From assembly GCA_920105625.2 (NCBI GenBank), contig OV050030.1, positions 94,804,652 to 94,868,651 of the forward strand: 64,000 bases of DNA, read 5' to 3'. The DNA is from Clusia tigrina (Eukaryota > Arthropoda > Insecta > Diptera > Clusiidae). Every line of letters starts with the position of its first letter. The stretch's first letter is position 1. Below the pieces are notes generated by a model. That model was not told the origin of the DNA and made no database searches. It was given only the letters and a program-made list of their open reading frames with translations. The position numbers and the translations under genes are program-made. Of this stretch, positions 18,510 to 62,573 are shown in pieces.

Positions 18510-19370
18510 CTCCTACGTCTGGATTTTCCCGCGGCTTGTTTGTAGGACGGGCATGAGCTGCATCCTGTCGGGTGCTCCACGTCCTTACGACCCTTGGCTG
18601 TGCAGAGTGCGCACGCAGGCGTCCTGTCGCACTCACGGGCGCTGTGTCCTTCTCCACCACATCTGTAGCACTTGTGGCGCCAGTCCTCTTTGCTAGTGCA
18701 CTTCTGTGAGATGTGACCAAACGACATACACTTGTAGCAGCGCACTGGTGTCACCTTCTCACGCACACGGCAAGAAGTCCATCCAACTCTAAGCCTGCCG
18801 ATTTTTACAAGGGTTGCGGCTACCTGGGGCGGTAAGCTGATGGTCGCCGTCTGCGTTCCCCCATATGCTTTGCGGAGGGATCTGACTGCACCCACGGGAG
18901 GTCTCTCTGAGACATTCAGCTGTTTACATAGCGCCTCATGAACATCTTCAACCATGGTAACCTCATCTAGATCCTTTACCTCCACCAGCGTCTCCTGCGT
19001 GAGTTTACGCACCTCCGCACTGGATCCTAGGACATTCACCACTGCCTTACTGTACTGCAGGGTCTTTGGATCTGCCCCTGCGCTCAGCTCCAGCAGCAAT
19101 TCACCTTTTGCCGTTTTGCGAATTCGCCGCACGCTCTCTCCCAGTTCAGAGAGCTGCGGATCCGTCTTGAGCTTCCGGAGGATTTCCGCATAATTCGCCA
19201 TCCCAGTTTCCTTTATCACTATAGCATCTGGGCGCACTTGCCTGGGCTTCAGGTCCTTAGGCTTGGCACGGGCGCGAGTACCGACCGTGATCCACCCCGC
19301 TTTTGCCACCTCTGGTTTGTCCGATTTGGGTTTAATCGCCTTGGACTTTGGCTTCGGCCGGGCTACCGCT

Positions 19371-30285: not shown

Positions 30286-30349
30286 TATTTTGTAAATTTA
30301 TCAATTGCTGTCATTCTAATTTTCCCTTCTATTATATGTCATTGTGTAT

Positions 30350-31830
30350 GGTTTGTCCTGGGAAAGTAGATAGTGGGGTTTCATTTATCTTTGGTTGATT
30401 AGGATACCTATTGTATTTGTTCTCTTTACATATCGTACAAATTGAAGTCACTCTTTTGATCTTAGTTGTCATTGCTGGGAATTTGTACTTCTGAAGAATT
30501 TATATTTTATTTTCTGACATGTTTCTATGTGCGTTGTTATGTTCTTCTAAAATATTATTTTCCTATTCTTGTTCATTAATGATGTCCTCTACAAACTTTT
30601 GAGTGTATCTTCTTTTATAGTTATTAAAATAATAGATAGAATTTATGTATAATGCCCATAATTCGTTCTTCTGTATGAATACCGTTTATAGCGGATGGAT
30701 TGTGGTTTTTTTTAAGGTGAGATATGAGTTTTTCTTCTATCATTTGTGGTTCCGTAATCATATGGTTGGAAATATGATATTAAATTGATAGGTTGAAGTT
30801 TCTCCGTGCTTAAAAAAAATTTGCTTCCTAAAGTCGGTGATTGGTTCTTATGCACATGGTATTAAATTTTGGTTAGAATTTTCATCGCTGTTGACAGTAG
30901 GCGTGAGTGAATTGGTTTCAATAAGTATTATTGCCAAGGCATCTGCGACGATATTTGCTCTTCCGGATTTATAAAACAGATCTTAGTTATATGCCTCTAA
31001 GTTGGCTTTCCACCTTTTCATTTTACTATTTGTATTTTTTATACTTAAGGCGTATGTTAGTGTTTGGTGATCTGTGAATATTTTCACCTTTTTCGAGTCG
31101 TATAAATAGTTTCTAAATGAATGTAATGAGCAAATGGTGAGGAGCATTTCTTTAGCATTTGTCGCGTAATTGTATTCCGTTTCAGAGAGCGTCCTTGATA
31201 TGAAAGCGATTTTGATGGTCTTATGATGCCATCTGCGAGGAGTTTTTCGACATATTCTTCAACTGCTTCTTTTAACGCCATGGGTTGCGAATACGATTTC
31301 GAATAGATTGGAGTCTCATTTGTAGTTCGAATTTCGCCTTTAATCATGGCGATGTATGTTAATTTTTTGTCAGGGTCAGAAAATGATTGAAGGTATCCTT
31401 GTTATTTTTGTATATTTGTGAGTTTTGTTTTTTGTTCATGTAGGAGATGTGGTGTACGTAAAGTAATGCTATTAATGTCCTGGGTGGCCTATTGATTAAG
31501 AGGTGTTTTTAGACTTGGAAAAATGGTCATATATCATTTGTTTGTGTGAATTCTTGCTTTTAGTTGTCTCAGCGTATCATTGCTTATGATACCATGAAAA
31601 GTTTTTAGCGAAGGTAAAACAAGAATTTTAGTTTTTCTGTTTCCGCTCTGAAGATGTTTACAAAGGTATGGTGAGTTATTTGAATATTTCTTGCAACTGA
31701 ATTTACGAAAAAGAATTTTTCGCTAGCGATAGGATTTATGATTCGCGTGGATTGAATATAGTTTTTATTCGAACCTGAGTCTATTAGTATTTTGAGAATA
31801 TCTCAATCCCTGACTTTAAATTCAAAATAT
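30350..31830 (-). pseudogene. Gypsy pol remnants (PR, RT, RNase H, IN)
   Basis: Readable pieces in order: ILIDSGSNKNYIQ (protease DSG), TETPIYSKSY-like start of RT with MALKEAVEEYVEKLLADGII and RPS (near 31240-31350), then a jump to RNase H with ATNAKEMLLTICSLHSFRNY and KKVKIFTDHQTLTYALS (near 31045-31180) and RWKANLEAYN. The integrase zinc-binding domain has EEHNNAHRNMSENK and CTICKENKYNRYP (near 30400-30560). The central RT catalytic region (YxDD) is absent. The order and motifs fit the gypsy/17.6 group. Confidence 0.75.
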
Positions 31831-32957
31831 GGGTGGGAAGATTTCCTAATCTAAAAAATAGAAATGATCAATTTCCTCCGCTTCGAAGATTTCATTTTCA
31901 TCATAATGTTCTCGGTCCGGAATGTTCAGTAAAATTTTTTTTGGAGTCCGATGTGACGTACATTTTCCTCAGTTTCTTCAGGAAGACTTTCATTAATGTG
32001 GAAATTTCTTTGCATTTTATTTGGACTGTAGACTTGCTGCTTGGAGAATTGAATGGGCTGTAGACAAGGTTTGTTGATAATTGACCTGGTGCGTCTGAAT
32101 AGAAGAGTCAATCTCTGGAGGTTTAGTTGGAATATATGGTTTATTGTATGCTGGCTGGTTGTTACTCTAATATTCTGGCTGGTTATTGAATTGCCGTTAT
32201 TAATTAAATCTCGATTGGTTGTTTAATCTTGGTCAGAATGAATTAGAAAAATTTGTACGATTAGGTCTTGAAAGATCGTGATTATTTCGAAATGGTTGAG
32301 GAAAGTGTACTAACTCTGCATAAAATCTGCAGTCCGGTTTTTGCAAGGAAGAGCAACTCCGTAATGTCATCCGGCATTATAATCTCAGTTTCTAAAAACC
32401 TAGTAACATTACAATTTACTTAAATTAGTTTTAATAGAATACTCAACATAATAATAATGCAATAATCATTAAAATACAATAACCTTCTGAAATTTTTCTA
32501 AAATGTGTAAAAATTTTTCTTACATGGCTTACGCAAAGTAGAAAAATATTTTAATGTTGTTTTTAGTTAGCTGATTTTCCGCTGATTCGTTGCCCTTTTG
32601 CTACAGGTGCTGCCGCGCTCCTTGGCAAGTTTTCACTTTTAATATTTTTTTTATTGTCAACTTTTGGAGTTATTCCGTTCGAGATTTTATTCTAGTTTAT
32701 TATTTCAGTACGCAAGCAAAGTAAATTTCATTTTGATTTTTCTGTTAAAAATATCACGCCAGCGGTGGTTGGCTAGGTTTGATGAATAATTCGGCTGCTG
32801 GTCCTTTTCCAACGACGTCGTCGTTTACTGAGGGGCCTCCTTATCACCAGTTTTGTAGAAACACCAATTATCCTACGTTTAATGTGATTTCGTTTTCAAA
32901 CTTCTCGAGCTTTACTTTTTCCGCTTATTAAATAGCACGAAACCGCTGATAGCTGTA

Positions 32958-32976
32958 TGTCCCTGCTCGGGCGCCA
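32958..32976 (-). other. Gypsy primer-binding site
   Basis: On the minus strand it reads TGGCGCCCGAGCAGGGACA, a near match to the tRNA-Lys type site of many retroelements (TGGCGCCC start). It marks the border between the LTR at right and the internal region at left. Confidence 0.75.
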
Positions 32977-33188
32977 GTTAAAACATTAATGTTTTAAATT
33001 TTAAAAATATATGATTTTTTTATAATGTGCAATTTGAATAATTTCAAACTATTTTAATAATTTCAAACAATGATATTTTTATTTCTCTGTTTTCCGTTGC
33101 TTCTGCTAATGTTGTGTTTGTTGTTTTCTCTCAAATTTCGCGCTGCTTCTGCTAATGCTGTTCTTTTTTTTCGCTGTAATTTTCCCTT

Positions 33189-33322
33189 GCAGCTATCGGC
33201 CGAAGGCCATGATATAGCTAAGCCATGAATAGGAAAATTCAGCTTTGCCACTATTGACTGCGCTGTCGGCATCGTCGTCGTCGTCGTCGTCGCCATAATG
33301 TTTTATTATTTTTACTGCGCAT
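33189..33322 (+). repeat. Densovirus ITR, NS end (partial)
   Basis: Starts inside the terminal hairpin (GCAGCTATCGGCCGAAGGCC) and continues through TTCAGCTTTGCCAC and the GTC/GAC tract to ACTGCGCATA. It equals about 134 of the 232 bases of the junction repeat. The hairpin arm has the opposite orientation to that facing unit 2 at the junction (flip versus flop). Its outer part was lost at integration. Confidence 0.85.
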
Positions 33323-33348
33323 AGTTAACGACTTATTTTGCAAAAGAG

Positions 33349-33356
33349 TATATAAG
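33349..33356 (+). promoter_or_regulatory. TATA box of NS promoter
   Basis: TATATAAG lies 27 bases after the terminal repeat and 34 bases before the first NS-region ATG (33383). Position and sequence fit the left-hand densovirus promoter. Confidence 0.7.
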
Positions 33357-33382
33357 CGCAATAAATTTCTCAAGTAACTTAA

Positions 33383-33682
33383 ATGAATTCTAGTAGCGAA
33401 AGTGAGTGTTCGTATAATTATTCAAGTGAAGAAAATGGCACCGACGAAAAAAGTGACGATTCGCGAGCCAGTAGTATTAGACGACGATTCTCCATTGGAG
33501 TCAGAAAACGAGCAGGAGATTCAACTTGGACAAAGATTAAGCGATTACGAAGAAGTATCAGTAATGCCGATTACGCAAGCAGTGGAGGAGACGATAGTGA
33601 AGGAGAAACAGAAGAAAAGGAAAGCAGAGGACAATCAGGAGATGACCAAAAAAAAAGAAATTGGATGTCGAAGCAGAAATGA
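33383..33682 (+). CDS. Small Ser/Glu-rich densovirus NS ORF
   Basis: A 99-codon frame starting at the first ATG downstream of the TATA box. It is acidic and serine-rich at the start (SSSESECSYNYSSEENGTDE), then Arg/Lys-rich (RASSIRRRFSIGVRKRA), and acidic again. It overlaps NS1 in another frame. It has no recognisable domain. It could be an NS3-like accessory product or an unused upstream frame that leaky scanning passes. It is absent from unit 2, which is truncated before this region. Confidence 0.45.
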   Translation: MNSSSESECSYNYSSEENGTDEKSDDSRASSIRRRFSIGVRKRAGDSTWTKIKRLRRSISNADYASSGGDDSEGETEEKESRGQSGDDQKKRNWMSKQK

Positions 33683-35294
33683 AAAAGGCGAGTCTTCTTC
33701 CAGAGAACTCAACGCATATTTCGCTTCTTTCATTGGTGATGCTGCTATGGACAAAGGAATTCCTTCTTCATGCAAATACAACATTGGAGATTTTGATCTC
33801 TCTCTCTTTGAAACAGAAGCAGTACGAGGCGAAACGATCTCTACATACGTTGATGGACTCCCTCCTGTATGCACAAAAAATAATTCTTGCCCAAAAGAAA
33901 GAATTAGGCAAGTATTCGTTGAAGCATTTAATCATAATCCTATTAAACAGCGAGTGGTCCACGATGTATTTGGAACAATTTATGACGTTGGAAACATCAA
34001 CATGGATTACCAACAATTATGTAGAAAATTTTCAGGGACCATCCTCATCATCGCACATCACGGGAATCACATCCATGTCATCCACGACTGCAATTACTCC
34101 AACAATTCCTGCCGATGTTCCTTCAATTCCTGCTTCCAGGAACGTATCACTAGAAGATTCGCTCGACGCGTTATTCCAAGTTGGAAATTCACGCTCCAGC
34201 ACTGGATCAATCTGTCAATCTATTTGCAGAAAGATTCCAGGGAGTACATATACTATAACATCGCCGGGGGAACGTGGTTTCCAAGTTGTGAAACTAGATG
34301 TATACGATTTTTCCAAGATCTGCAAGAAGCCGAAGAAGGAATGGTGGACGGAAGCGAATTTTCGTTCAACATTTACAATCCAATCTCCTTTGGATCCCAA
34401 TTACAAAACAATAATGAAGTTATTAGTATCTGTAACGAATCAGTTACAACAGATACCAAATGTCAAAAGAGAGGAAAGGGAGACAAAATAATTGATTTTC
34501 TAAAAGAACATCCAACAGCTCCCATAAGCCATATTTTAAATACATCAATGTGGCTATCTTCGCAATTTCGGTTCTTTGACTTAAATTCTACTTTAATAAA
34601 AAATTGTATAAGAATAGTAAATAACTATATAAATAATTTAACTTTCCAGGAAATTTTTTTATATTTACAATCTGTTGAACCACAAAATTTAATTTTTAAC
34701 GCACCAGTAGGTAATTTATATAATTATTATTATTCTATTCAAGAATCAGTAAATATTTTAGATAACTTATTAAAATTTCAATTTTATAATGATTATAATG
34801 AAATAATAAAATTTTTAATTAATTTATATAATGTTATTGATAAAAATATTCCTAAAAAAAATACTTTATTTATATTATCACCTCCAAATGCTGGTAAAAA
34901 TTATTTTTTTGATACTTTTATTCATTTTTGTTTAAATTTTGGCCAAGTTGGCAATTTTAATCGTTATAGTTCTTTTCCATTAATGGAATGCGTTGACAAG
35001 AGAATAATTCTATGGAACGAACCTATACTGGAGCCGTCAGCAACTGAAACATTAAAAATGTTATTTGGTGGAGATACTGTTGCAGCTAAAGTTAAATATT
35101 CAAATGATACTGTAGTCATGCGAACACCAATTATTGTTCTATCAAATAACGATGTATTCCCAAATGATAAAGCTTTTAGATCTAGAATGTTTATTTATAA
35201 GTGGAGATCATATAAAAATTTAAAAAATTATAATAAAAAACCACATCCTTTGTCAAGTTATCATTTATTGAAAAAATATAATATATTACAATAA
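33435..35294 (+). CDS. NS1: Densovirus NS1 replication initiator
   Basis: Replication initiator that nicks the terminal hairpin and unwinds viral DNA. I choose ATG 33435 (context AAAATGG), giving 619 residues. An earlier in-frame GTG is unlikely. The N-terminus is charged and disordered-looking. An HUH-type metal site is visible as HIHVIHDC near residue 215, and a superfamily 3 helicase lies at the C-terminus: Walker A PPNAGKN (about residue 480), Walker B RIILWNEP and motif C PIIVLSNND (about 570). The frame is open throughout. The stop TAA overlaps an AATAAA signal, and the convergent VP stop lies 9 bases away. No break was seen; whether the sequence is expressed or functional cannot be told from here. 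Confidence 0.88.
   Translation: MAPTKKVTIREPVVLDDDSPLESENEQEIQLGQRLSDYEEVSVMPITQAVEETIVKEKQKKRKAEDNQEMTKKKEIGCRSRNEKGESSSRELNAYFASFIGDAAMDKGIPSSCKYNIGDFDLSLFETEAVRGETISTYVDGLPPVCTKNNSCPKERIRQVFVEAFNHNPIKQRVVHDVFGTIYDVGNINMDYQQLCRKFSGTILIIAHHGNHIHVIHDCNYSNNSCRCSFNSCFQERITRRFARRVIPSWKFTLQHWINLSIYLQKDSREYIYYNIAGGTWFPSCETRCIRFFQDLQEAEEGMVDGSEFSFNIYNPISFGSQLQNNNEVISICNESVTTDTKCQKRGKGDKIIDFLKEHPTAPISHILNTSMWLSSQFRFFDLNSTLIKNCIRIVNNYINNLTFQEIFLYLQSVEPQNLIFNAPVGNLYNYYYSIQESVNILDNLLKFQFYNDYNEIIKFLINLYNVIDKNIPKKNTLFILSPPNAGKNYFFDTFIHFCLNFGQVGNFNRYSSFPLMECVDKRIILWNEPILEPSATETLKMLFGGDTVAAKVKYSNDTVVMRTPIIVLSNNDVFPNDKAFRSRMFIYKWRSYKNLKNYNKKPHPLSSYHLLKKYNILQ
33679..34491 (+). CDS. NS2-like ORF overlapping NS1
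   Basis: A 270-codon frame (+1 relative to NS1) that lies wholly inside NS1. The first ATG is at 33679; the open frame itself begins at 33661. It has a Ser/Thr/Pro-rich middle (SSSHITGITSMSSTTAIT) and a Lys/Trp-containing C-terminal part (KICKKPKKEWWTEANF). Its length is close to the NS2 of known ambisense densoviruses, which also overlaps NS1. Part of the frame is still open in unit 2, with at least two replacements. NS2 is an accessory protein of uncertain role. Assignment rests on position, length and frame. Confidence 0.6.
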   Translation: MKKASLLPENSTHISLLSLVMLLWTKEFLLHANTTLEILISLSLKQKQYEAKRSLHTLMDSLLYAQKIILAQKKELGKYSLKHLIIILLNSEWSTMYLEQFMTLETSTWITNNYVENFQGPSSSSHITGITSMSSTTAITPTIPADVPSIPASRNVSLEDSLDALFQVGNSRSSTGSICQSICRKIPGSTYTITSPGERGFQVVKLDVYDFSKICKKPKKEWWTEANFRSTFTIQSPLDPNYKTIMKLLVSVTNQLQQIPNVKREERETK

Positions 35295-35330
35295 AAAGTA
35301 AAATTATAAATTTAAATGTTGTGTTTTATT
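35290..35330. terminator. Convergent poly(A) signals of NS and VP
   Basis: AATAAA on plus at 35290-35295 overlaps the NS1 stop. AATAAA on minus at 35330-35325 lies inside the last VP codons. The two transcripts would overlap at their 3' ends, as described for ambisense densoviruses. The mirrored signals recur at 39823-39863. Confidence 0.65.
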
Positions 35331-37316
35331 TATAACATCATATTCTTCATCATCATCTTCTTCATTTAAAATTGCATTTACTTTTCCATTATCGTCATCT
35401 GTAACGCCGAATAATGTTTGACCATCTGTGTAAGCTCTATCATAATTAGCACAAAAAGTTGCTTCTAAAGGCCAACTAACACTAAATCCTTTGCCAAATG
35501 CTGATGTAATATTACATTTAATTTCTATTGAACATTCTACTTTCCAATAACATGCGCTATTTAAATAACTAGTTGAATTATCTGTTGGTTTTAATTGAGG
35601 AGTTGCAATTAACCCCACATGTAATTGAGGTTGTGTATCATAACCGAATCCACCTCTTATTGGATGATATGTACCATATGATTCTATTGTTCTAGCATAT
35701 ACATCATTTATATTATTAATTACGATAGGTGTTGTTGCACTTTTACTTAAACCTATATCTCCAGATATTGGTTTATTGCCAGCTTTAAAGAATTGTAGTA
35801 CATGACTATGTGGTCTAATTTTTAAAGAATGAACTTTATATTTTTGTCTTGTATATGGGACAAAATGTTCTTTACCACGTTTTATAAATCCACTTTTTGG
35901 TCTATATTCATAATTTGCAATTGGGATTCCTATTGATTGATTTATTAAAAACTGGTGAACTTTTTCATCCATTCTCACACTTCCTTTATCATGAATTATA
36001 TATTCTGGATATTTGCCTTCATCTGGATTTCTTTCTCGGTTCCATTCATGGACAAAGTATTGTTCAATTGGTGTTGGAACACATAGTGCATTTGATGGAA
36101 TGTGTTTATAATATTTTTGGTACATTTCAGTAACATCAATTGTTTCCAATCCAGTTACTCTCATCGGATCTGTTCCAGCTGAAGTATATTTTACATTTTT
36201 TCCATAAAATGTTTTATTTAATCCTTCTGCTACCAATCCAATTGGTACATATTCTGAAGTTGCAGTTCCAGTCACAGTTGAACCAATGTCAAAAGCAGTA
36301 CGAGTACCTAATGGAGTTACTTGGCATGTAGCTTTCATTACTTCTGCAGTTGTCGGTAACATATCATATTCAGCTTCACTTAGATAAAAAGGTATAAAAT
36401 CAACTGGAATTAGAGCTAAAGGTGTAGTAATTTGATCAATTGTTTGTGAAGTTTGAATGTTCTCAGTACTAGAACCATAACTTACTAATATTTTGGTCTT
36501 TGAAAAATGCATATAATTACTAGAACATGGTGTACTAGGTCTTATCCATGTGATACCCGTAGTAGAGGAATCTCCACTTCCTGTTGCACCCGATCGCGCC
36601 CCTGTATTCGGGCCACGACCTGAACCACTTTGCTGATGAATATTTTCTTGATCAACATCCATATTAGAAGAAGCAGTATTAGGATGATTAGTTTTTTCAA
36701 CGAATAAAGGATCGTGTTCAACACTTGAATCAGATTCACTATCTGGATCAGATCTTGGTCTCTTGGCGGGTGGTCCGTTATTGGTTCCGGCGCGGTTTGC
36801 ATTAAAATCTCTTTCTAAAGCTTTATAATAGTATCCTCCAACTTTATAACTATCGTAGATTTGTTTACTTATTAATGCGTTTGCTTTAAATTCTTGAAAA
36901 TTTCGATATCCGCCTTTATCTGGTGTATCTTTTATACGTGCCCACTCTTGTGCAAAATGTCTTTCTCGTGAAGCATATATTAATTGAGGTAAAGTTTTCT
37001 CTTTTTCTCCTTGCATTCTAGGATATTGTACACCAAACACACTTTCAAAACCATATTTCAATGATAATCCAACAATTCCAGTTAATTCAGCTAATGATCC
37101 GTTTTTATGATAATCAGATATAAATGAATTAATTGCAACACGATCAGCTTCTCTTATTTGTTCCTTTGTTGTTGCTAATTCATATGTTAAATCGTGAATG
37201 TATGCATCAAAATCAACTTCATCAACCGGTTCGTCGTCTTTGTATACTGTGTTGCCTGGTCCCAAGTAATTATGACCTGGAAATGTGTATCCGTCACTGC
37301 TATGATATAACACCAT
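35304..37316 (-). CDS. VP: Densovirus capsid protein VP1, unit 1
   Basis: Structural protein with a built-in phospholipase A2 used during entry into cells. 670 residues, ATG at 37316. Near the N-terminus are the calcium-loop motif YLGPGN (about residue 16) and the catalytic HD pair in the helix AYIHDLTYE (about residue 38), typical of the parvovirus VP1 unique region. A Gly/Ser-rich stretch (QQSGSGRGPNTGARSGATGS, about residue 230) precedes the jelly-roll capsid part, as in other parvoviruses. The frame is open from start to stop. A single VP frame rather than a split one is notable for this group. Expression in the host is unknown. Confidence 0.9.
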   Translation of the reverse strand: MVLYHSSDGYTFPGHNYLGPGNTVYKDDEPVDEVDFDAYIHDLTYELATTKEQIREADRVAINSFISDYHKNGSLAELTGIVGLSLKYGFESVFGVQYPRMQGEKEKTLPQLIYASRERHFAQEWARIKDTPDKGGYRNFQEFKANALISKQIYDSYKVGGYYYKALERDFNANRAGTNNGPPAKRPRSDPDSESDSSVEHDPLFVEKTNHPNTASSNMDVDQENIHQQSGSGRGPNTGARSGATGSGDSSTTGITWIRPSTPCSSNYMHFSKTKILVSYGSSTENIQTSQTIDQITTPLALIPVDFIPFYLSEAEYDMLPTTAEVMKATCQVTPLGTRTAFDIGSTVTGTATSEYVPIGLVAEGLNKTFYGKNVKYTSAGTDPMRVTGLETIDVTEMYQKYYKHIPSNALCVPTPIEQYFVHEWNRERNPDEGKYPEYIIHDKGSVRMDEKVHQFLINQSIGIPIANYEYRPKSGFIKRGKEHFVPYTRQKYKVHSLKIRPHSHVLQFFKAGNKPISGDIGLSKSATTPIVINNINDVYARTIESYGTYHPIRGGFGYDTQPQLHVGLIATPQLKPTDNSTSYLNSACYWKVECSIEIKCNITSAFGKGFSVSWPLEATFCANYDRAYTDGQTLFGVTDDDNGKVNAILNEEDDDEEYDVINKTQHLNL

Positions 37317-37460
37317 ACTAACAGCAAAACCATTTTAAAATTATTTAAATAATACCAATATGCGCAATAAATTATCTTAGCAACATTGTATTACTTAGCA
37401 ACATTGTATTATACTGGTTTTTAACGTGCAACGTGACTTCATGTTTACGTTATAGTATTA

Positions 37461-37692
37461 TATGCGCAGTAAAAATAATAAAACATTATGGCGACGACGA
37501 CGACGACGACGATGCCGACAGCGCAGTCAATAGTGGCAAAGCTGAATTATCCTATTCATGGCTTAGCTATATCATGGCCTTCGGCCGATAGCTGCCGAAT
37601 GGAAAATTCAGCTTTGCCACTATTGACTGCGCTGTCGGCATCGTCGTCGTCGTCGTCGTCGCCATAATGTTTTATTATTTTTACTGCGCATA
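37461..37692. repeat. Densovirus ITR palindrome joining the two units
   Basis: A 232-base near-perfect palindrome running from TATGCGCAGTAAAA to TTTTACTGCGCATA. Each arm has a (GAC)6 tract (near 37493-37511 and mirrored near 37642-37660). As I recall, the NS1 of a lepidopteran densovirus binds GAC repeats. The centre (37543-37608) is an imperfect hairpin with GGCCTTCGGCC near the tip and small bulges. The palindrome continues beyond 37461 and 37692 into the inverted arms. Confidence 0.92.
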
Positions 37693-37836
37693 TAATACTA
37701 TAACGTAAACATGAAGTCACGTTGCACGTTAAAAACCAGTATAATACAATGTTGCTAAGTAATACAATGTTGCTAAGATAATTTTTTGCGCATATTGGTA
37801 TTATTTAAATAATTTTAAAATGGTTTTGCTGTTAGT
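37693..37836 (+). promoter_or_regulatory. VP promoter region, unit 2 (mirrored in unit 1)
   Basis: Between the ITR and the VP start lies an AT-rich leader with a direct repeat (ATACAATGTTGCTAAG twice, 37744-37780) and TATTTAAATAAT (about 37800), a possible TATA element about 35 bases before the ATG. The mirror image is at 37317-37460. Upstream ATG 37820 is out of frame and unlikely to be used. Confidence 0.5.
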
Positions 37837-39849
37837 ATGGTGTTATATCATAGCAGTGACGGATACACATTTCCAGGTCATAATTACTTGGGACCAGGCA
37901 ACACAGTATACAAAGACGACGAACCGGTTGATGAAGTTGATTTTGATGCATACATTCACGATTTAACATATGAATTAGCAACAACAAAGGAACAAATAAG
38001 AGAAGCTGATCGTGTTGCAATTAATTCATTTATATCTGATTATCATAAAAACGGATCATTAGCTGAATTAACTGGAATTGTTGGATTATCATTGAAATAT
38101 GGTTTTGAAAGTGTGTTTGGTGTACAATATCCTAGAATGCAAGGAGAAAAAGAGAAAACTTTACCTCAATTAATATATGCTTCACGAGAAAGACATTTTG
38201 CACAAGAGTGGGCACGTATAAAAGATACACCAGATAAAGGCGGATATCGAAATTTTCAAGAATTTAAAGCAAACGCATTAATAAGTAAACAAATCTACGA
38301 TAGTTATAAAGTTGGAGGATACTATTATAAAGCTTTAGAAAGAGATTTTAATGCAAACCGCGCCGGAACCAATAACGGACCACCCGCCAAGAGACCAAGA
38401 TCTGATCCAGATAGTGAATCTGATTCAAGTGTTGAACACGATCCTTTATTCGTTGAAAAAACTAATCATCCTAATACTGCTTCTTCTAATATGGATGTTG
38501 ATCAAGAAAATATTCATCAGCAAAGTGGTTCAGGTCGTGGCCCGAATACAGGGGCGCGATCGGGTGCAACAGGAAGTGGAGATTCCTCTACTACGGGTAT
38601 CACATGGATAAGACCTAGTACACCATGTTCTAGTAATTATATGCATTTTTCAAAGACCAAAATATTAGTAAGTTATGGTTCTAGTACTGAGAACATTCAA
38701 ACTTCACAAACAATTGATCAAATTACTACACCTTTAGCTCTAATTCCAGTTGATTTTATACCTTTTTATCTAAGTGAAGCTGAATATGATATGTTACCGA
38801 CAACTGCAGAAGTAATGAAAGCTACATGCCAAGTAACTCCATTAGGTAATCGTACTGCTTTTGACATTGGTTCAACTGTGACTGGAACTGCAACTTCAGA
38901 ATATGTACCAATTGGATTGGTAGCAGAAGGATTAAATAAAACATTTTATGGAAAAAATGTAAAATATACTTCAGCTGGAACAGATCCGATGAGAGTAACT
39001 GGATTGGAAACAATTGATGTTACTGAAATGTACCAAAAATATTATAAACACATTCCATCAAATGCACTATGTGTTCCAACACCAATTGAACAATACTTTG
39101 TCCATGAATGGAATCGAGAAAGAAATCCAGATGAAGGCAAATATCCAGAATATATAATTCATGATAAAGGAAGTGTGAGAATGGATGAAAAAGTTTACCA
39201 GTTTTTAATAAATCAATCAATAGGAATCCCAATTGCAAATTATGAATATAGACCAAAAAGTGGATTTATAAAACGTGGTAAAGAACATTTTGTCCCATAT
39301 ACAAGACAAAAATATAAAGTTCATTCTTCAAAAATTAGACCACATAGTCATGTACTACAATTCTTTAAAGCTGGCAATAAACCAATATCTGGAGATATAG
39401 GTTTAAGTAAAAGTGCAACAACACCTATCGTAATTAATAATATAAATGATGTATATGCTAGAACAATAGAATCATATGGTACATATCATCCAATAAGAGG
39501 TGGATTCGGTTATGATACACAACCTCAATTACATGTGGGGTTAATTGCAACTCCTCAATTAAAACCAACAGATAATTCAACTAGTTATTTAAATAGCGCA
39601 TGTTATTGGAAAGTAGAATGTTCAATAGAAATTAAATGTAATATTACATCAGCATTTGGCAAAGGATTTAGTGTTAGTTGGCCTTTAGAAGCAACTTTTT
39701 GTGCTAATTATGATAGAGCTTACACAGATGGTCAAACATTATTCGGCGTTACAGATGACGATAATGGAAAAGTAAATGCAATTTTAAATGAAGAAGATGA
39801 TGATGAAGAATATGATGTTATAAATAAAACACAACATTTAAATTTATAA
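37837..39849 (+). CDS. VP: Densovirus capsid protein VP1, unit 2
   Basis: Second, inverted copy of the capsid gene, also 670 codons and open throughout, with the same PLA2 motifs. Compared with unit 1 it has three amino-acid differences seen here: Thr/Asn at 38848-38850, His/Tyr near 39196 and Leu/Ser at 39328-39330. There are no indels over 2,013 bases. Two long, nearly identical open copies suggest either a recent insertion or ongoing sequence exchange between the arms. Confidence 0.9.
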   Translation: MVLYHSSDGYTFPGHNYLGPGNTVYKDDEPVDEVDFDAYIHDLTYELATTKEQIREADRVAINSFISDYHKNGSLAELTGIVGLSLKYGFESVFGVQYPRMQGEKEKTLPQLIYASRERHFAQEWARIKDTPDKGGYRNFQEFKANALISKQIYDSYKVGGYYYKALERDFNANRAGTNNGPPAKRPRSDPDSESDSSVEHDPLFVEKTNHPNTASSNMDVDQENIHQQSGSGRGPNTGARSGATGSGDSSTTGITWIRPSTPCSSNYMHFSKTKILVSYGSSTENIQTSQTIDQITTPLALIPVDFIPFYLSEAEYDMLPTTAEVMKATCQVTPLGNRTAFDIGSTVTGTATSEYVPIGLVAEGLNKTFYGKNVKYTSAGTDPMRVTGLETIDVTEMYQKYYKHIPSNALCVPTPIEQYFVHEWNRERNPDEGKYPEYIIHDKGSVRMDEKVYQFLINQSIGIPIANYEYRPKSGFIKRGKEHFVPYTRQKYKVHSSKIRPHSHVLQFFKAGNKPISGDIGLSKSATTPIVINNINDVYARTIESYGTYHPIRGGFGYDTQPQLHVGLIATPQLKPTDNSTSYLNSACYWKVECSIEIKCNITSAFGKGFSVSWPLEATFCANYDRAYTDGQTLFGVTDDDNGKVNAILNEEDDDEEYDVINKTQHLNL

Positions 39850-39858
39850 TTTTATTTT

Positions 39859-41060
39859 TTATTGTAATATATTATATTTTTTCAATAAATGATAACTTGA
39901 CAAAGGATGTGGTTTTTTATTATAATTTTTTAAATTTTTATATGATCTCCACTTATAAATAAACATTCTAGATCTAAAAGCTTTATCATTTGGGAATACA
40001 TCGTTATTTGATAGAACAATAATTGGTGTTCGCATGACTACAGTATCATTTGAATATTTAACTTTAGCTGCAACAGTATCTCCACCAAATAACATTTTTA
40101 ATGTTTCAGTTGCTGACGGCTCCAGTATAGGTTCGTTCCATAGAATTATTCTCTTGTCAACGCATTCCATTAATGGAAAAGAACTATAACGATTAAAATT
40201 ACCAACTTGGCCAAAATTTAAACAAAAATGAATAAAAGTATCAAAAAAATAATTTTTACCAGCATTTGGAGGTGATAATATAAATAAAGTATTTTTTTTA
40301 GGAATATTTTTATCAATAACATTATATAAATTAATTAAAAATTTTATTATTTCATTATAATCATTATAAAATTGAAATTTTAATAAGTCATCTAAAATAT
40401 TTACTGATTCTTGAATAGAATAATAATAATTATATAAATTACCTACTGGTGCGTTAAAAATTTAATTTTGTGGTTCAACAGATTGTAAATATAAAAAAAT
40501 TTCCTGGAAAGTTAAATTATTTATATAGTTATTTACTATTCTTATACAATTTTTTATTAAAGTAGAATTTAAGTCAAAGAACCGAAATTGCGAAGATAGC
40601 CACATTGATGTATTTAAAATATGGCTTATGGGAGCTGTTGGATGTTCTTTTAGAAAATCAATTATTTTGTCTCCCTTTCCTCTCTTTTGACATTTGGTAT
40701 CTGTTGTAACTGATTCGTTACAGATACTAATAACTTCATTATTGTTTTGTAATTGGGATCCAAAGGAGATTGGATTATAAATGTTGAACGAAAATTCGCT
40801 TCCGTCCACCATTCCTTCTTCGGCTTCTTGCAGATCTTGGAAAAATCGTATACATCTAGTTTCACAACTTGGAAACCAAGTTCCCCCGGCGATGTTATAG
40901 TATATGTACTCCCTGGAATCTTTCTGCAAATAGATTGACAGATTGATCCAGTGCTGGAGCGTGAATTTCCAACTTGGAATAACGCGTCGAGCGAATCTTC
41001 TAGTGATACGTTCCTGGAAGCAGGAATTGAAGGAACATCGGCAGGAATTGTTGGAGTAAT
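39859..41060 (-). pseudogene. Densovirus NS1, unit 2, truncated with stop
   Basis: C-terminal part of NS1 in the inverted unit. It retains the superfamily 3 helicase region but is cut off at 41060, equivalent to position 34093 of unit 1, so the start and most of the HUH nuclease region are missing. A single substitution creates TAA at 40464-40462 where unit 1 has a Leu codon, splitting the remainder into an upstream piece (about 155 codons) and a downstream helicase piece. It cannot encode a working initiator. Confidence 0.9.
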
Positions 41061-41084
41061 ACTTCCATTTTATTTGCGTTTACA

Positions 41085-41310
41085 TATGTAATTCAGCTCT
41101 ACTTAGTTTACTTTACATATATACATATACATATAAATATACATATACATATACCTATACATATACATACACATATACATAAACATATACATATACATTT
41201 CCATATACATATACATACACACATACATATACATATTCCTATACATGTACATGTACATATACATAAAAATATACTTATATACCTACTTCTATATATATAT
41301 ATAACCATAT
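41085..41310. repeat. (TACATA)n simple repeat
   Basis: Interrupted TACATA and CATATA units that begin about 25-50 bases after the densovirus breakpoint at 41060. The intervening 41061-41084 shows no match to the virus. Open frames with Ile/Cys repeats here are artefacts. Confidence 0.9.
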
Positions 41311-42236
41311 CCCAACACGCTGATTGGATCTTATCAGTGCGGTTTTCGACCTGGAAAGTCCACCGTTGACCAGAAATTCATGCTCCTCAAAATTCTGCAT
41401 AAACTCAACGTGGAGCAGATCAACACCCATCATCTCTTTGTCGACTATAAAGCTGCTTTCGATAGCCCGATAAGGGATTGCCTATATGCAACAATGTCTG
41501 AGTTCGGTATTCCTACAAAGCTAATACATTTCTGTAGAATGACATTGAGTAATACGTCCAGCTCTGTCAGGTTGGGAACTGACCTCTCCAGACCGATGGG
41601 TGTTCGAAAAGAAAATTCTTCCTAAAATCTTTCGTCCTCCTGAACTGTACGAACCTTACGTTCATATTGACATTGTCAAAAGCCGCTATACAACGTCTGC
41701 GCCGGTTTGCACATGATGTGGAAATGGACGTATCAGCTCCAACGAAAAATGTGTTCGAAGCGGAAGCCGCTGGTCGTCTAGGAAACCCTAACTTGGATAA
41801 TGTTATATGCAGAAGAAGTACTAAAAGAGCTACGTCGGCTAGAAAGAATCGACGCAATTTAAACTAGAGAATGTCGCATGGATGCGGCAGAATAGTAGAG
41901 GCAGCTTTTCGTAGCATAGCTCCCCAACCTCGACGCCTGCTCAAGAGAGCGTTATCCGAGGGGATGTGGGTGGAAAGGAGACGATTTTAGTGGCGTAGGC
42001 CTCTCCGGAGGAGTCCCACAGTACCAGCGCGGCAGGAGCCTGCTGGTCTCCATGAGGATTTCACGTTTCCCATCGGAGGAAAAAAAATACATATATCTAT
42101 ACATGTACATTCGCATATGCACATACATTTGCATATACATATACACATCTATATACATGTAAATTTGCATATACATATACAGCGCTGCTAAGTTCGGCCG
42201 TAACCCGATAGCTGTATGTTTCGCAGGAAAGTAAGT
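41311..42236 (+). mobile_element. RTE LINE fragment with internal deletion
   Basis: It starts with reverse transcriptase sequence YQCGFRPGKSTVDQKFMLLK, then DTHHLFVDYKAAFDS-type text (here NTHHLFVDYKAAFDS, near 41425-41470) and MSEFGIPTKLI, clear RTE-clade motifs. Near 41600 a deletion joins RT to the C-terminal region (VEMDVSAPTKNVFEAEAAGR, near 41720-41780) and later pieces in several frames, ending in a TAAG repeat (42230-42241). The catalytic YADD segment is missing. Non-functional. Confidence 0.82.
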
Positions 42237-52144: not shown

Positions 52145-53333
52145 GTATAACTTGTTTTTGTTTTATGTTTTGTTATTACCACTATTTGGACTTTTGCTTA
52201 TTATTAATTTTGATTTTTGGCTTACACATTTAAGCAAAATTGCAATCTGAAACCAGTGGTAGAGTCACTATCTCGGCGATTTGCGTGATCACTTTAAGTG
52301 TTTATAATTTGTATTATTTCTATTTTTATATTTCCCTTTTTTTATGAGACTATGTGGAACGTTTCAAAAACACATCCGCACAGTATGAAATCACAAACTT
52401 TAATTTTTGATATCCCTTGATCGGTTTTTTCTCGGCGTGGCGTCTGATGATTCGGCAAGCCTTTCCTTCGGGTTTCCTTTGGTTCGTGGTGGGCAGCAGG
52501 AAAATGAAACCGTATGCCCGATTGAAGTCGCTTTGTTGTACTCTCTTGGCCTTAGGTGACCTTCAATACTTTCGGGAAAAGTTCTTCTGTAGACAAACGC
52601 CTAGTAGTTGTTGCGGCACATCGTTGTAGTTGCACGCCCTGTTTTTGTTGCAACTATTTCCCATTGGCCTTCTTTGCGCGAGAATTTCATACTGATTTGT
52701 TCTTGCTCCTTACTTGTTATCAATTGACGGTTAACAATTTTAAAATTAGAGATCTGTGTTTGAATATTATTTATTATATTCTTCTTTGTGCTATATCCTT
52801 GCTGGTTGTATATACGGCGATCGTTCTGTCGTCGTCTCTTTTGTTCTTCCCACTCGGAGGTTCGTGTTGTTATTGTTATATTTGCCGAGCTAGTGCACTC
52901 GATAAATTCAGACGAAACTTGTAGTAATTCGTCGCATGCATAATTGTTAGTGTAATTTGAATGTATGTTTATATAATTTTTGTACTGCGTAATTTTTATG
53001 TGCTCCCATTCTTCGTGATTCTAATTGGTGTGTTCGCTGCGTATGATGGTTTTATTTTGTTTTTATCTATGATATTTGACTTGCAGAGTGTCGGCGTGCC
53101 GGTGTTCAATTCTCCGCTCTTTTTTCTTTTTAATACAAGTATGTATATCAAAAATAAAAAAATATCTACGAGTGTAAAATTTAGCATCAAAGTGGTAAAC
53201 ATTTTTTGTTGGCTAGCCTTTATGGGCAGGCCAAAAACAATTAATTAAATCACAAACAAAAATTTTAAATTAGTGGTTCCAAACAAAAAACAACAACAAT
53301 AGAAGGAAAAAAAAATAAACAAAAACAATTTAC
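52145..53333. other. Spacer between head-to-head Jockey elements
   Basis: Contains the presumed 5' UTR of the minus-strand Jockey (from 52145 rightward) and of the plus-strand one (leftward from 53333). Small open frames (52417-52629, 52556-52924, 52961-53248) have no motifs. The boundary between the two elements could not be fixed. Confidence 0.5.
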
Positions 53334-54945
53334 ATGAGCATTCGACACTCACCGCCACAAGCGAGAGATCGATGTCTCACCCGCGCGTATCCCCCGCATG
53401 CAGCAATAGACAGTAATCAACAAATCAATTTAACCCCAACGGAGATGATCTCTCACAATAGTTCATCACATGCGCAATCACCACTAGTAATTCAGCAAAC
53501 GGTAAGCACTGATTACGCTCAAACTTCTAAGCTAGTCACACCCACACCAATAAAACTAATAAACACGCAGGAGCAAAGCAACATTGCTCTTTGCACAACA
53601 AAAAAAATAAGCACAGATTCTCAAGCAAACTCGGCTACGCTAAATATGCCAGCAAACTTTCAGCTCTCTTGGAGTGGACAATGTGCCTCTCCAAATTCAA
53701 CAGCATCTCCAACACAAATCAAAAACAACAAAGGTTCTGCTATGAGTATATATAAGCAACAACAACTTACCAATGTTGCAAATAAAACTATAGAAACACA
53801 GTGTGCAAAACCAAACATAAGCACACAAACAGGTATTGATCGATACATAACAATAAAACGAAAACGCAGCCCGATTGCCAAGGCAGAAAAGAAAAAACTT
53901 GTTCAAAATAATACATATACCCTAAACAACAACCGTTTTGCTCTATTAAGCGATAGTGCAGAGTCTGAACCAACTAAGAGTATTGCATTCAAACCACCAC
54001 CAATTTACTTGCGGGAACGCAGTTCCAACTTATTAATAGACAGTGTTGCCAGCTTGATTGGTAAAAATAATTTTCATGTGGTCCCGCTGTTGAAGGGTAT
54101 TTGGAAAAAAACTATCGGGCAGTTGTTTCTTTCCTTGAAAATGAACAGAAAAATTACTATACTTATCAGATAAAAAGTAGCAAAGGGTTGACAGTTGTTA
54201 TTAAAGGTATAGAACCTGAAGTATACCCTTTAGAACTAAAATATGCACCCCAAGACACTGGATTCACAGCAAAATCTGTGTTTAATATAAGGAATAGGGA
54301 AAAAATTCCGCAACCACTCTTTAGAATAGAACTAGAACCAGGGAATATTAGATTAAAACAAAACGAAACCCACCCCATTTACAACTTAAAATATTTAATG
54401 CATCGTAGAATAATAGTCGAGGATCCTCACAAATGAAAAGGTCCAATACAATGCACAAACTGCCAAGAGTATGGGCATTCGAAATCGTACTGCACCTTAC
54501 GTACTGTATGCGTTGCGTGTGGCGACTTCCATCCATCAAAGGAATGCAAGCTGAACACAAGTGAGAAGGATACAAAAAAATGCAGCAATTGTGGGGGAAT
54601 CATACTGCTAACTACAGAGTCTGCCCGATATATACACAACTAAAAATCAGTATGAACCAAACTGCTAAGACAGTTCGAACCCAAAAATATAGTGCTATAC
54701 CTACCAACACAAACCATATTGGAAGCACCACCGAAAACATCTCTTCATCCACTAGCTATGCGAATGTACTGAAAACTGGCGTTTCTGATAAACCGAGTCA
54801 CCCTATGCAACCTCAAAATTTACAAACATTAATATTTAACTTGTCTCAGTGTATTACTAACTTCATGTCCTCGATGCAATCTATGATTCAAGAGCTTGTA
54901 CATAACCAAAACTTACTTATGAAAACTCTACTTTCACAAAAATGA
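53334..54945 (+). pseudogene. Jockey ORF1, array copy 1
   Basis: Gag-like protein. The ATG at 53334 begins MSIRHSPPQARDRCLTRAYP. A Gln/Thr/Ser-rich N-terminal part is followed by TGIDRYITIKRKRSPIAKAE and LRERSSNLLIDSVASLIGKN. A deletion near 54100 shifts the frame. PRE_C2HC-like sequence (LTVVIKGIEPEVYPLELKYA) follows, then a TGA at about 54434, then zinc knuckles CTNCQEYGHSKSYC and CVACGDFHPSKEC (54450-54550). One G is missing near 54595 (copy 2 has six Gs), shifting the third knuckle. It ends with TGA 54943-54945, overlapping the ORF2 ATG. Confidence 0.85.
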
Positions 54946-57561
54946 ATGTTCTAAAAATATGTCATTGGAATGCTAACGGTATTAACCAACACAAAATTGA
55001 ATTAAAAAATTTTCTAGACAGTAACAGCATAGACATCATGCTTATCTCAGAGACACATTTAACTGTAAAATATAACTTCAAACTAGCAGGCTATAATTTT
55101 TACTCAACAAACCACCCACAAGGAAAAGGTTATGGTGGTACGGGAATTATAATTAAGTCTCGATTAATGCATTACTTTCTGGAATCCTATGCAAAAAAAA
55201 CATCCATTCTACTTCCATCTCTTTACAGTGTTGGGGTGAGCCAATAGTAATTTCATCAGTCTATTGTCCTCCTAGGTTTCCTATTTCCACAACCGATTTT
55301 GTTTCTTTCTTTAAATCGCTCGGTAACAAATTTCTCTCTGCCGGAGACTTCAATTCTAAACATACCTACTGGGGCTCACGGTTAATCAACCCTAAAGGAA
55401 AGCAAATGTTTAATGCACTGATAGACTCTCGGAATGGTCTAGACTTTGTATCATCTGGAAAACCTACATACTGGCCAACTGATCAAAGAAAAATTCCCGA
55501 TCTTATTGACTTTGGCATAACTAAAAATATTGAAAGGTGTTTCTTGGAAACCGAGCCCTGTTTCGACTTATCATCCGATCACTCACCGGTGATAATATAT
55601 TTAGCAAAAAGACCAGAGTTCATTGAAAAAACAATAAAACTGACCTCCAAGAACACAAACTGGCTCAAATATCGCATATCGAATATATTAGTACCCACGT
55701 GTGCGTTAAAACAAAACTTAAGAGTGGAGAGGACATTGAATCAGCTACGCAGGCTCTTGGTTCAATAATAAAAGCAGCTGCTATTAGTGCCACGCCCGCA
55801 CAAAACTCAACTAAAACTAACGCGAGACACACTACATCACACTATGTGGAATGCCTCGTTAGAGAAAAGAGGAGATTAAGGCGTGAATGGCAAAAATACA
55901 GATCTCCAGCACTAAGAGTAAAATTAAAGTCATTACAAAATCAGCTGAAAAACACTCTACGGGAGGAAAAGGAAGAAAACCTTAATAAGTACCTTGAAGA
56001 TTTGGCTCCTCTCAAAGTCACCAATTACTCACTCTGGAGAGCGACAAGAATGGTTAAAACACCAAAGGATAGTGAATCGCCTCTAAGACAAAGCGATGGA
56101 ACTTGGGCAAAAACAGAAGAAGAAAAAGGCAACTTCTTTGCAGCCCATCTGAGGTCAGTATTTCAACCTAACCCGCCGACCTGCAACAACACTAGCATAC
56201 AGAACTTTTCAATTACGAAGTCAGCAGTACCAATTCATTTCAAACCAAAGGAAGTTATACGCCTATGTACAACGAGTCTAAACCCAAAAAAGGCACCTGG
56301 TTGTGACCTAATTACCAATAAAATGGTAAGTGAATTGACACAAATAGCTCTAATACATCTCACACACATTTTTAACGCAATACTCCGTCTGGGCTACTTC
56401 CCTACAACATGGAAAACGTCGGAAATAATAATGATTCCAAAACCCGGAAAAGACCCTACTCAGGTATCTTCTTATCGGCCATAAGTCTCCTGCCAACGCT
56501 CTCTAAAACGCTCGAACGCTTATTGCTGGAAAAATTAGCACCAAAGCTCGATTTAATCATTCCTCACCACCAATTTGGTTTCCGCAAACATCATGGAACT
56601 ATTGAGCAGGTGCACCGTATTGCCTCTGAAATAAGGCGAGCATTTGAACAGAGGATGTACTGCTCCGGAATATTCCTAGACGTTGCACAAGCCTTTGACA
56701 AAGTCTGGCACGAAGGACTCATATATAAAATTAAAAAACTTCTGCCAAATAGTTCGCATAAGATTCTGGAGTTATATTTAACAAATCGCAAATTTAGGGT
56801 TAAATATAAAGAATTTGTAACGCCAGACTTTGAATTTATGGCTGGAGTACCACAAGGTAGTGTGCTTGGACCTATGCTTTACACTCTGTACACTTCCGAT
56901 CTGCCAACGAATAAAAACCTCGTTACCCCGACTTTCGCTGACGACACAGCTATCCTGAGCTCTCACCTAAATCCACGGATAGCCTCCCGGGATTTAGAGG
57001 AACACCTTAAAAAAATAGAAAGTTGGCTAGCAGATTGGCGCATCAAAGTAAATGAGCAAAAAAGTGTACATGTGACATTTACTCTTAAGCCCAGTTCTTG
57101 TCCGGCAGTCTCCTTAAATGGCATTGTAATACCGCAAGCAACAGAGGTTAAATACTTAGGAGTGCATTTTGACCGACGGCTCATCTGGAAAAAACATATA
57201 GAAGCCAACAAAATGCAAATGAAACTCAAGGCAGTTCCTTGTATTGGCTTACCAACCGATAATAAATTAATTAATTAAACCGATTTGGACTTATGGTATT
57301 CAGATATGGGGCACTACTAGTGCACCAAACTTGCAAATAATTCAAAGGGCTCAATCGAAAATTCTGAGAACGATCAGCGGCGCTCCATGGTTTGTCAGAA
57401 ACGAAAATATTCACCGCGACCTTAATATAGCACCCGTTGAAGAAGAACTAGCAGTTTTAAAAACAAAATACCAATTCAAACTTCAGTGTCATCCTAACGA
57501 ACTAGCAAGGAATCTGCTTCATAGGATGAATACATCTCGACTTAAAAGGCCACTTTTTTAA
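54942..57561 (+). pseudogene. Jockey ORF2, array copy 1
   Basis: Endonuclease MNVLKICHWNANGINQHKIE, LISETHLTVKYNF, then a frameshift near 55190, AGDFNSKHTYWGSRLINPKG (near 55345-55400) and LSSDHSPVIIYLAKRPE. A frameshift near 55700 leads to the linker (ESATQALGSIIKAA to LKVTNYSLWRATRMVKTPKD) and RT with KKAPGCDLITNKMVS. Another shift near 56480 is followed by QFGFRKHHGTIEQVHRIASE, FLDVAQAFDKVWH, GVPQGSVLGPMLYTLYTSDL and PTFADDTAILSSH (catalytic, near 56930-56965). After a deletion near 57262 it ends RMNTSRLKRPLF. The frameshifts at 55190, 55700 and 56480 recur in copy 2. Confidence 0.87.
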
Positions 57562-57764
57562 AAAAATAGAGTTTCTTTATATTAATATTTTTATATTTAT
57601 TTTTTTTCTACATAATTTATATAATACTTGAACTAAAATTGCTCTAAGCACTGGCGCGGAGCATCAATTTATTTATTAGTTGTAAGCTTTGTAAAATTAT
57701 TGTTGGTTTCGATTGAAAAGATGCAATAAATAAATCCATGTTGAATTAAAAAAAAAATAAAAAA

Positions 57765-58463: not shown

Positions 58464-58486
58464 TCAAAAACAACAAAGGTTCTGCT

Positions 58487-62369: not shown

Positions 62370-62573
62370 AAAAATAGAGTTTCTTTATATTAATATTTTT
62401 ATATTTATTTTTTTTTCTACATAATTTATATAATACTTGAACTAAAATTGCTCTAAGCACTGGCGCGGAGCATCAATTTATTTATTAGTTGTAAGCTTTG
62501 TAAAATTATTGTTGGTTTCGATTGAAAAGATGCAATAAATAAATCCATGTTGAATTAAAAAAAAAATAAAAAA

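What the first reader, a model, noticed from the sequence alone, without database searches (positions are those of the whole stretch)
33189..41060. Integrated densovirus as a tail-to-tail inverted dimer
Seen: NS(+)-VP(-)-ITR-VP(+)-NS(-) with exact mirror symmetry about 37576.5 and equal arm lengths. Known: parvoviruses replicate by rolling hairpin through dimeric duplex intermediates joined by one terminal repeat. Inference: a dimer replicative form, not a packaged monomer, was captured in the genome. Most endogenous densovirus copies are fragments, so a near-complete dimer is unusual.
Basis: partly seen in the sequence, partly recalled or inferred. Interest (0 to 1): 0.92.

Follow-up and report, generated by a model that had tools for sequence, protein, structure and literature searches.

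The report
Inverted double copy of integrated densovirus
A fly-like genome carries an insect densovirus inserted as two mirror-image copies joined by one hairpin end; it is one of many such insertions, and together they record the replication forms in which the virus entered the chromosomes.

Summary
Real, and part of something larger. The window holds an ambisense densovirus insertion (about 33,172-41,060): a near-complete left unit and a mirror-image second unit, joined tail-to-tail by one complete 232-nt hairpin telomere. 'Equal arms' is wrong: the right arm lacks about 0.9 kb. The arms differ at 12 of 3,460 positions without indels, which speaks against a read-through artefact. NS is broken in both arms, VP open in both. 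The same assembly holds at least 71 further NS and 65 further VP matches. Of the joints I read, tail-to-tail ones are exactly 232 nt in 8 of 8, head-to-head in 6 of 8, head-to-tail within 1 nt in 3 of 7. Of 22 viral ends read inside a telomere, 18 keep 129-152 nt, centred on 140; and 232 = 140 + 140 - 48 (one shared tip), as hairpin-primed copying predicts. The window's arms share one viral haplotype (rank 2 of 210 copy pairs); other neighbouring units mostly do not. No target-site duplication was evident. Best reading: end-joining capture of a rolling-hairpin dimer, repeated many times with monomers, dimers and arrays. A new variant of a known kind; dimers are not rare in this genome.

The parts
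33172..33323 (+). Outer terminal repeat of the left unit (tip and inner arm complete from 33,189; a short part of the outer arm, with small gaps, to about 33,172)
   Evidence: 134 of 135 nt equal to the joint telomere; telomere match 1-152 of 232; alignment
33383..33682 (+). 99-aa frame that matches the N-terminus of related NS proteins; out of frame with the rest of NS
   Evidence: BLASTP to relatives, best 3.6e-14
33387..35294 (+). NS frame, left unit (Parvo_NS1; conserved H-x-H and helicase motifs)
   Evidence: Pfam 8.9e-15; alignment with 18 relatives; motif names recalled
35304..37334 (-). VP frame, left unit (ATG at 37,316; PLA2-like domain and Denso_VP4)
   Evidence: Pfam 2.2e-8 and 1.7e-28
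37461..37692 (.). Joint: one complete hairpin telomere, two 92-nt arms around a 48-nt tip
   Evidence: DNA fold -132 kcal/mol, z -29; centre on the mirror axis
37819..39849 (+). VP frame, right unit, open
39859..41060 (-). NS, right unit: N-terminal part absent, one in-frame stop
30335..33171 (-). Left host flank: degenerate Gypsy-like retrotransposon (RT and RNase H pieces, likely primer-binding site and LTR)
   Evidence: translations read by eye; no family search was run on it
41061..41620 (+). Right host flank: TATACA-type simple repeat and a LINE-like reverse transcriptase fragment

Best explanation
The locus is an integrated tail-to-tail dimeric replicative form of an ambisense densovirus. 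Shown: two mirror-image units joined by one 232-nt telomere, host DNA on both sides, right unit truncated inside NS, arms slightly diverged and of nearly one haplotype. Inferred: the natural viral end is a repeat of about 140 nt (92-nt arm plus 48-nt self-folding tip); the folded tip primes copying of the arm, giving arm-tip-arm (232 nt) and a mirror-image second genome, as in rolling-hairpin replication; the unresolved dimer was then joined to a chromosome break by end joining, with loss of about 0.9 kb at one end. The same virus population entered this genome many times, as monomers, dimers and longer arrays, the head-to-tail steps of the arrays made at least in part by end joining of unit ends.
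For: Joint folds as one complete telomere centred on the axis. Arms 12/3,460 substitutions, no indels. Tail-to-tail joints 232 nt in 8 of 8 read, head-to-head 6 of 8, head-to-tail 3 of 7 (Fisher p 0.045). 18 exact 232-nt telomeres in the list, each with viral sequence on both sides in the stretches read. 18 of 22 viral ends read inside telomeres keep 129-152 nt, 11 of them 136-141. Window arms differ at 2 of 37 shared viral sites, rank 2 of 210 pairs, and are each other's nearest copy. Tail-to-tail neighbours are alike next to the joint: 9/4,064 against 25/4,062 for head-to-tail. No target-site duplication evident. A second virus lineage sits as a tail-to-tail dimer too.
Against: The other three tail-to-tail pairs tested differ at 7/39, 13/39 and 9/39 shared sites, no closer than many unlinked pairs, so fold-back of one genome alone does not explain them; later recombination has to be added. 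Three head-to-tail joints are within 1 nt of 232, which fold-back does not make. Head-to-head neighbours show no excess similarity near the joint (p 0.51). Gene conversion between arms could also make the window's arms alike. The 140-nt end is inferred from integrated copies, not virions; some ends keep 42, 171, 178 or 191 nt. No raw reads, no empty site.
Confidence: 0.8

Rival explanations
1. Post-integration palindrome: a monomer integrated first; later its hairpin end folded back at a chromosome break and host repair synthesis copied the unit before the end was joined to other DNA.
For: Gives the same 232-nt joint and one haplotype; the right arm stops inside NS before any left host flank would have been copied, so the sequence cannot exclude it.
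Against: Needs a break at the viral end at each of many loci; arrays with mixed haplotypes are not made this way.
Confidence: 0.1
2. Two separate viral genomes were joined end to end through their terminal repeats (recombination between molecules, as described for AAV vectors; recalled), not copied from one another.
For: Other tail-to-tail neighbours carry different haplotypes; head-to-tail joints exist and one of 279 nt is about two 140-nt ends.
Against: In the window the arms differ at only 2 of 37 shared sites, rank 2 of 210 pairs; tail-to-tail joints are uniformly 232 nt (8 of 8 read).
Confidence: 0.06
3. Assembly or sequencing artefact: a closed viral hairpin was read through both strands, or free virus was joined to host contigs.
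For: A hairpin telomere could act like a sequencing hairpin adaptor (inference); no reads were available; one array has a run of N beside it.
Against: 12 substitutions and no indels between the arms; different DNA beyond the two borders; right arm shorter; such joints at several loci on large contigs.
Confidence: 0.04

Closest known systems
Densovirus integrations in the tapeworm Echinococcus multilocularis (PMC6880638; passages and one section read)
   Same: Multi-copy endogenous densovirus (26 NS loci there), concatemers, complete stem-loop repeats of 228-229 nt with 95-96-nt stems, frameshifts in the N-terminal part of NS
   Different: The passages describe head-to-tail concatemers; tail-to-tail or head-to-head pairs are not mentioned in what I read (those terms were not found in the main text); another virus lineage, NS and VP in one direction as far as I read
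Jumbled IHHNV element in Penaeus monodon (PMC8982415; passages read)
   Same: Densovirus of about 4 kb integrated as repeated and inverted pieces; hairpin RNA proposed by its authors
   Different: Scrambled short fragments in a 9-kb stretch; a 2,877-bp inverted repeat is reported in one related copy, but not whole units joined by a complete telomere in what I read
Bemisia tabaci ambidensovirus and its endogenous pieces (PMC12297876; passages read)
   Same: Homotelomeric ambisense densovirus with I-shaped, flip-flop hairpin ends; an endogenous copy that begins inside the flip-flop part of the terminal repeat
   Different: ITR 207 nt, genome 5,123 nt; partial endogenous copies, no dimer in the passages read
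JcDV vectors integrating in Sf9 cells (PMC5978394; passages read)
   Same: Apparently random integration of an ambidensovirus DNA with loss of NS sequence
   Different: Transfected vectors; integrants scrambled; its authors say they cannot show concatemers for one vector type

Membership tests
Parvoviridae, Densovirinae (ambisense densoviruses) | NS1 with nickase and SF3 helicase domains | tested here: met
   Parvo_NS1 8.9e-15; conserved H-x-H block and helicase block in 19 aligned sequences (motif names recalled)
Parvoviridae, Densovirinae (ambisense densoviruses) | Densovirus capsid protein with PLA2-like domain | tested here: met
   Denso_VP4 1.7e-28, PLA2-like 2.2e-8; solved densovirus capsids matched
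Parvoviridae, Densovirinae (ambisense densoviruses) | NS and VP on opposite strands, ends converging | tested here: met
   NS + to 35,294, VP - from 35,304
Parvoviridae, Densovirinae (ambisense densoviruses) | Inverted terminal repeats that form hairpins | tested here: met
   134 of 135 nt inverted repeat between the two ends of the left unit; hairpin fold
Parvoviridae, Densovirinae (ambisense densoviruses) | Packaged linear ssDNA genome | not testable with these tools
   Only integrated copies seen; relatives occur as unnamed 4.0-4.6 kb contigs
Rolling-hairpin dimeric replicative form | Two mirror-image units with one telomere at the joint | tested here: met
Rolling-hairpin dimeric replicative form | Both arms copied from one genome | tested here: met
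   2 of 37 shared sites differ, rank 2 of 210; gene conversion not excluded. Other tail-to-tail pairs in the genome do not meet it (7/39, 13/39, 9/39)
Rolling-hairpin dimeric replicative form | Complete outer ends on both units | tested here: not met
   Right unit truncated at 41,060 inside NS; so a truncated dimer
Endogenous viral element | Host DNA on both sides | tested here: met
   Transposon-rich flanks in a 430-Mb contig
Endogenous viral element | Same insertion in other individuals or species | not testable with these tools
   Only one assembly held, without relatives in the collection
DNA transposon (considered) | Target-site duplication | tested here: not met
   Longest words shared by both borders 5-8 nt at nine of ten insertions (one of them with an N-filled flank) and 11 nt at one, where it looks like telomere sequence; 5 nt at the window

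The most novel reading that the evidence does not exclude
The family is not only a set of fossils: this densovirus persists partly as an inherited, multi-copy element that re-enters the chromosomes again and again from its own rolling-hairpin forms, and palindromic copies such as this one can give long hairpin RNA that the host's RNA interference turns against the free virus.
Probability: 0.15. Interest if true: 0.85.

Novelty: new variant of a known kind. Interest (0 to 1): 0.62.

Why it matters
Densovirus replication intermediates are normally studied in infected cells. Here one genome preserves monomers, tail-to-tail and head-to-head pairs and mixed arrays side by side, so joint lengths and end positions can be used to infer the natural telomere end, the product of hairpin-primed copying, and the end-joining step. 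The two arms of a dimer also form an internal clock for the age of an insertion, as LTR pairs do for retroviruses, with the caution that gene conversion slows it. If transcribed, such palindromes would be ready-made sources of antiviral double-stranded RNA, which is directly testable.

Tried and rejected
Scans of the viral-contig collection with NS alone and with NS and VP alignments found no relative. The host was not identified: the flanks are transposons, the LINE search listed mostly unnamed proteins, and the named NS relatives from a host genome nearest in the tree are from the fly Eurosta solidaginis. My first reading, that the left end is a 232-nt telomere cut near its apex, was dropped when free ends proved to centre on 140 nt and no complete 232-nt telomere was seen at a host border. 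Dating: K 0.0035 gives about 3.0e5-6.2e5 host generations at two mutation rates recalled for Drosophila; I do not rest on it. A strand read-through artefact was judged unlikely. The coding differences between the arms (5 nonsynonymous or stop, 4 synonymous) fit neutral change (p 0.175) and do not fit strong constraint well (0.033 at omega 0.1, 0.205 at 0.2); too few to decide. The empty site could not be sought: the flank search did not complete. A scan for bacterial promoters was uninformative.

Rows dropped before a count: three 37-residue NS rows of the 73 are not in the table. Searches used 21 copies; they left out fragments, the 68.2-Mb and 94.39-Mb copies, the second lineage and all copies not fetched. 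One search scored 40 of 118 candidates, so its list is partial. Incomplete telomeres inside joints (C4:108.255, C4:108.268, C1:94.39 Mb) and the second lineage are not among them. The two head-to-tail joints at C1:364.66 Mb, one a likely duplicate, count once; those at C1:68.2 and C1:312.8 Mb share variants and may not be independent. The second lineage's tail-to-tail joint has another telomere and is in no joint count.

Not in print: ten library searches listed no paper that I recognised as describing a tail-to-tail endogenous densovirus dimer. Only open-licence papers are held; eight were opened, in passages (one section of PMC6880638 in full).
Full report
What is there. The window carries an ambisense densovirus insertion. 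The left unit has NS on the plus strand (33,387-35,294) and VP on the minus strand (35,304-37,334); Pfam names Parvo_NS1 (8.9e-15), Denso_VP4 (1.7e-28) and a PLA2-like domain (2.2e-8). A mirror-image unit follows: VP on plus (37,819-39,849), NS on minus (39,859-41,060). The arms 34,093-37,552 and 37,601-41,060 agree at 3,448 of 3,460 positions, with 12 substitutions and no indels. It is the only inverted repeat of 200 nt or more found in the window.

The right arm ends at 41,060, which mirrors 34,093; counted from the axis the arms are 4,405 and 3,484 nt. The right unit lacks the outer terminal repeat and the start of NS. The left viral border is nearer 33,172. NS is broken on both sides: on the left its N-terminal piece lies in another frame (a 99-aa frame matches NS N-termini, best 3.6e-14); on the right it is truncated and has an in-frame stop. 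VP is open in both arms. NS matches without stops inside the matched part exist elsewhere in the genome; I single out none.

The joint. 37,461-37,692 is one complete hairpin telomere of 232 nt: two 92-nt arms around a 48-nt tip. It folds at -132 kcal/mol against a shuffle mean of -32 (z -29), and its centre equals the mirror axis. The tip is asymmetric: the left end of the insertion agrees with the joint at 134 of 135 nt read from the left unit and 99 of 135 read from the right one, like the flip and flop of parvovirus telomeres (a flip-flop palindrome is described for BtaDV, PMC12297876, passages).

The rest of the genome. After several unanswered requests, searches of the window's own assembly (1.21 Gb, 666 contigs; window at C1:94,804,652-94,868,651) gave 73 NS matches, 67 VP matches and 80 telomere matches, most places counted on both strands; the window itself holds two NS and two VP of these, and the tool calls its counts lower bounds. 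The 70 NS rows that I tabulated fall into 32 clusters. I fetched 20 stretches and 11 short ones and mapped pieces of the window unit on them. There are single monomers, tail-to-tail (TT) and head-to-head (HH) pairs, and arrays with head-to-tail (HT) steps; one array on C4 at 108.24-108.27 Mb shows nine NS copies, one of them partial.

Kinds of joint. TT joints measure exactly 232 nt in 8 of 8 read. HH joints do so in 6 of 8 (others 258 and 135). HT joints are within 1 nt of 232 in 3 of 7 (others 159, 183, 201, 279). TT plus HH against HT gives p 0.045, a modest number, and two of the three exact HT joints may share an origin. In the list I count 18 exact 232-nt telomeres: 9 TT, 6 HH, 3 HT. All 18 have viral sequence on both sides in the stretches that I read; in one of the nine TT only about 14 nt of virus follow, and it is not among the 8.

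Where free ends lie. Of 22 main-lineage viral ends read inside a telomere, 11 keep 136-141 nt and 18 keep 129-152 nt; the others keep 42, 171, 178 and 191. In 20,000 uniform draws no 6-nt window held more than 7. One arm plus the tip is 140 nt. So the natural end is probably a repeat of about 140 nt, and 232 = 140 + 140 - 48: the tip folds back (z -2.45 on its own), primes copying of the arm and yields arm-tip-arm. The 279-nt HT joint is about two such ends joined. This is inference from lengths in integrated copies, not from virions. The left end of the window belongs to a smaller class that keeps about 150-152 nt.

One genome or two. Over 21 copies there are 39 sites where two or more copies share the rarer variant and 71 private ones. 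Shared variants are 12 nonsynonymous to 27 synonymous, against a neutral expectation of 74.5% nonsynonymous or stop (p 1e-8): they arose in replicating virus. Private ones are 43 to 28, closer to neutral but still below it (p 0.009), and different from the shared ones (p 0.005): change after integration mixed with viral variation. The window's arms differ at 2 of 37 shared sites (rank 2 of 210 pairs) and at 7 of 64 private ones. The other three TT pairs differ at 7, 13 and 9 of 39 (ranks 15, 141, 43). So the window fits a dimer of one genome, while the arrays mix haplotypes. Next to the joint, TT neighbours are more alike (9 differences in 4,064 nt) than HT neighbours (25 in 4,062; p 0.006, or 0.034 without the window). 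For HH neighbours the same kind of test shows nothing (p 0.51). Viral recombination is evident: 275 of 741 site pairs show all four gametes. Gene conversion within palindromes could mimic part of this.

Integration. At ten insertions tried (one with an N-filled flank) the longest words shared by both borders were 5-8 nt at nine and 11 nt at one, where it looks like telomere sequence; at the window 5 nt with the corrected border (one search used the old border). No target-site duplication is evident. That argues for end joining. The left host flank is a degenerate Gypsy-like element, the right one a simple repeat with a LINE-like fragment. The empty site could not be sought.

A second lineage. 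At C1:88.35 Mb a virus with about 72% NS protein identity also sits as a TT dimer, its arms differing at 6 of 4,066 positions, so dimers arose in at least two virus lineages. Its VP start and upstream region match the main lineage at 95-100% of nucleotides while its other coding pieces match at 68-81%: a natural mosaic.

Placing it. The features of ambisense Densovirinae that I could test are met; the genus is open. The nearest NS relatives are unnamed contigs (63% identity over 89% of the query for the best) and, in the tree, proteins annotated in the fly Eurosta solidaginis. In print, the tapeworm integrations, the jumbled shrimp element and the whitefly pieces are closest. The ten searches named above listed no paper that I recognised as describing a TT dimer.

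Verdict. A real, truncated tail-to-tail dimer in host DNA, best read as capture of a rolling-hairpin intermediate. It is not exceptional within this genome, but the genome as a whole is an unusually rich record of such forms.

Noticed in passing
window 53,319-64,000: Three head-to-tail copies, spaced about 4.8 kb, of a LINE-like element (endonuclease and reverse transcriptase domains); pieces 99-100% alike, the last one cut by the window end.
   Followed up: partly
window 15,592-19,369: LINE-like open frames on the minus strand with G+C about 54-56%, in a window that is otherwise mostly 30-45%.
   Followed up: partly
G000 C1:88,347,046-88,356,024: Tail-to-tail dimer of a second densovirus lineage whose VP start and upstream region are 95-100% identical to the main lineage: a mosaic.
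   Followed up: partly
G000 C1:10.66, 11.02 and 12.53 Mb: Trios of NS matches recur with equal spacing at 10.66 and 11.02 Mb and nearly so at 12.53 Mb, which looks like host segmental duplication carrying older copies.
   Followed up: no
G000 C4:108,236,588-108,272,916: Non-adjacent units of the array (sixth and eighth; fourth and seventh) share almost one haplotype while immediate neighbours do not; unexplained.
   Followed up: partly
window 33,349 and 35,269-35,330: TATA-like box before NS of the left unit only (the right arm lacks that part), and polyadenylation-like signals where NS and VP converge; the latter would limit read-through into a hairpin RNA.
   Followed up: partly
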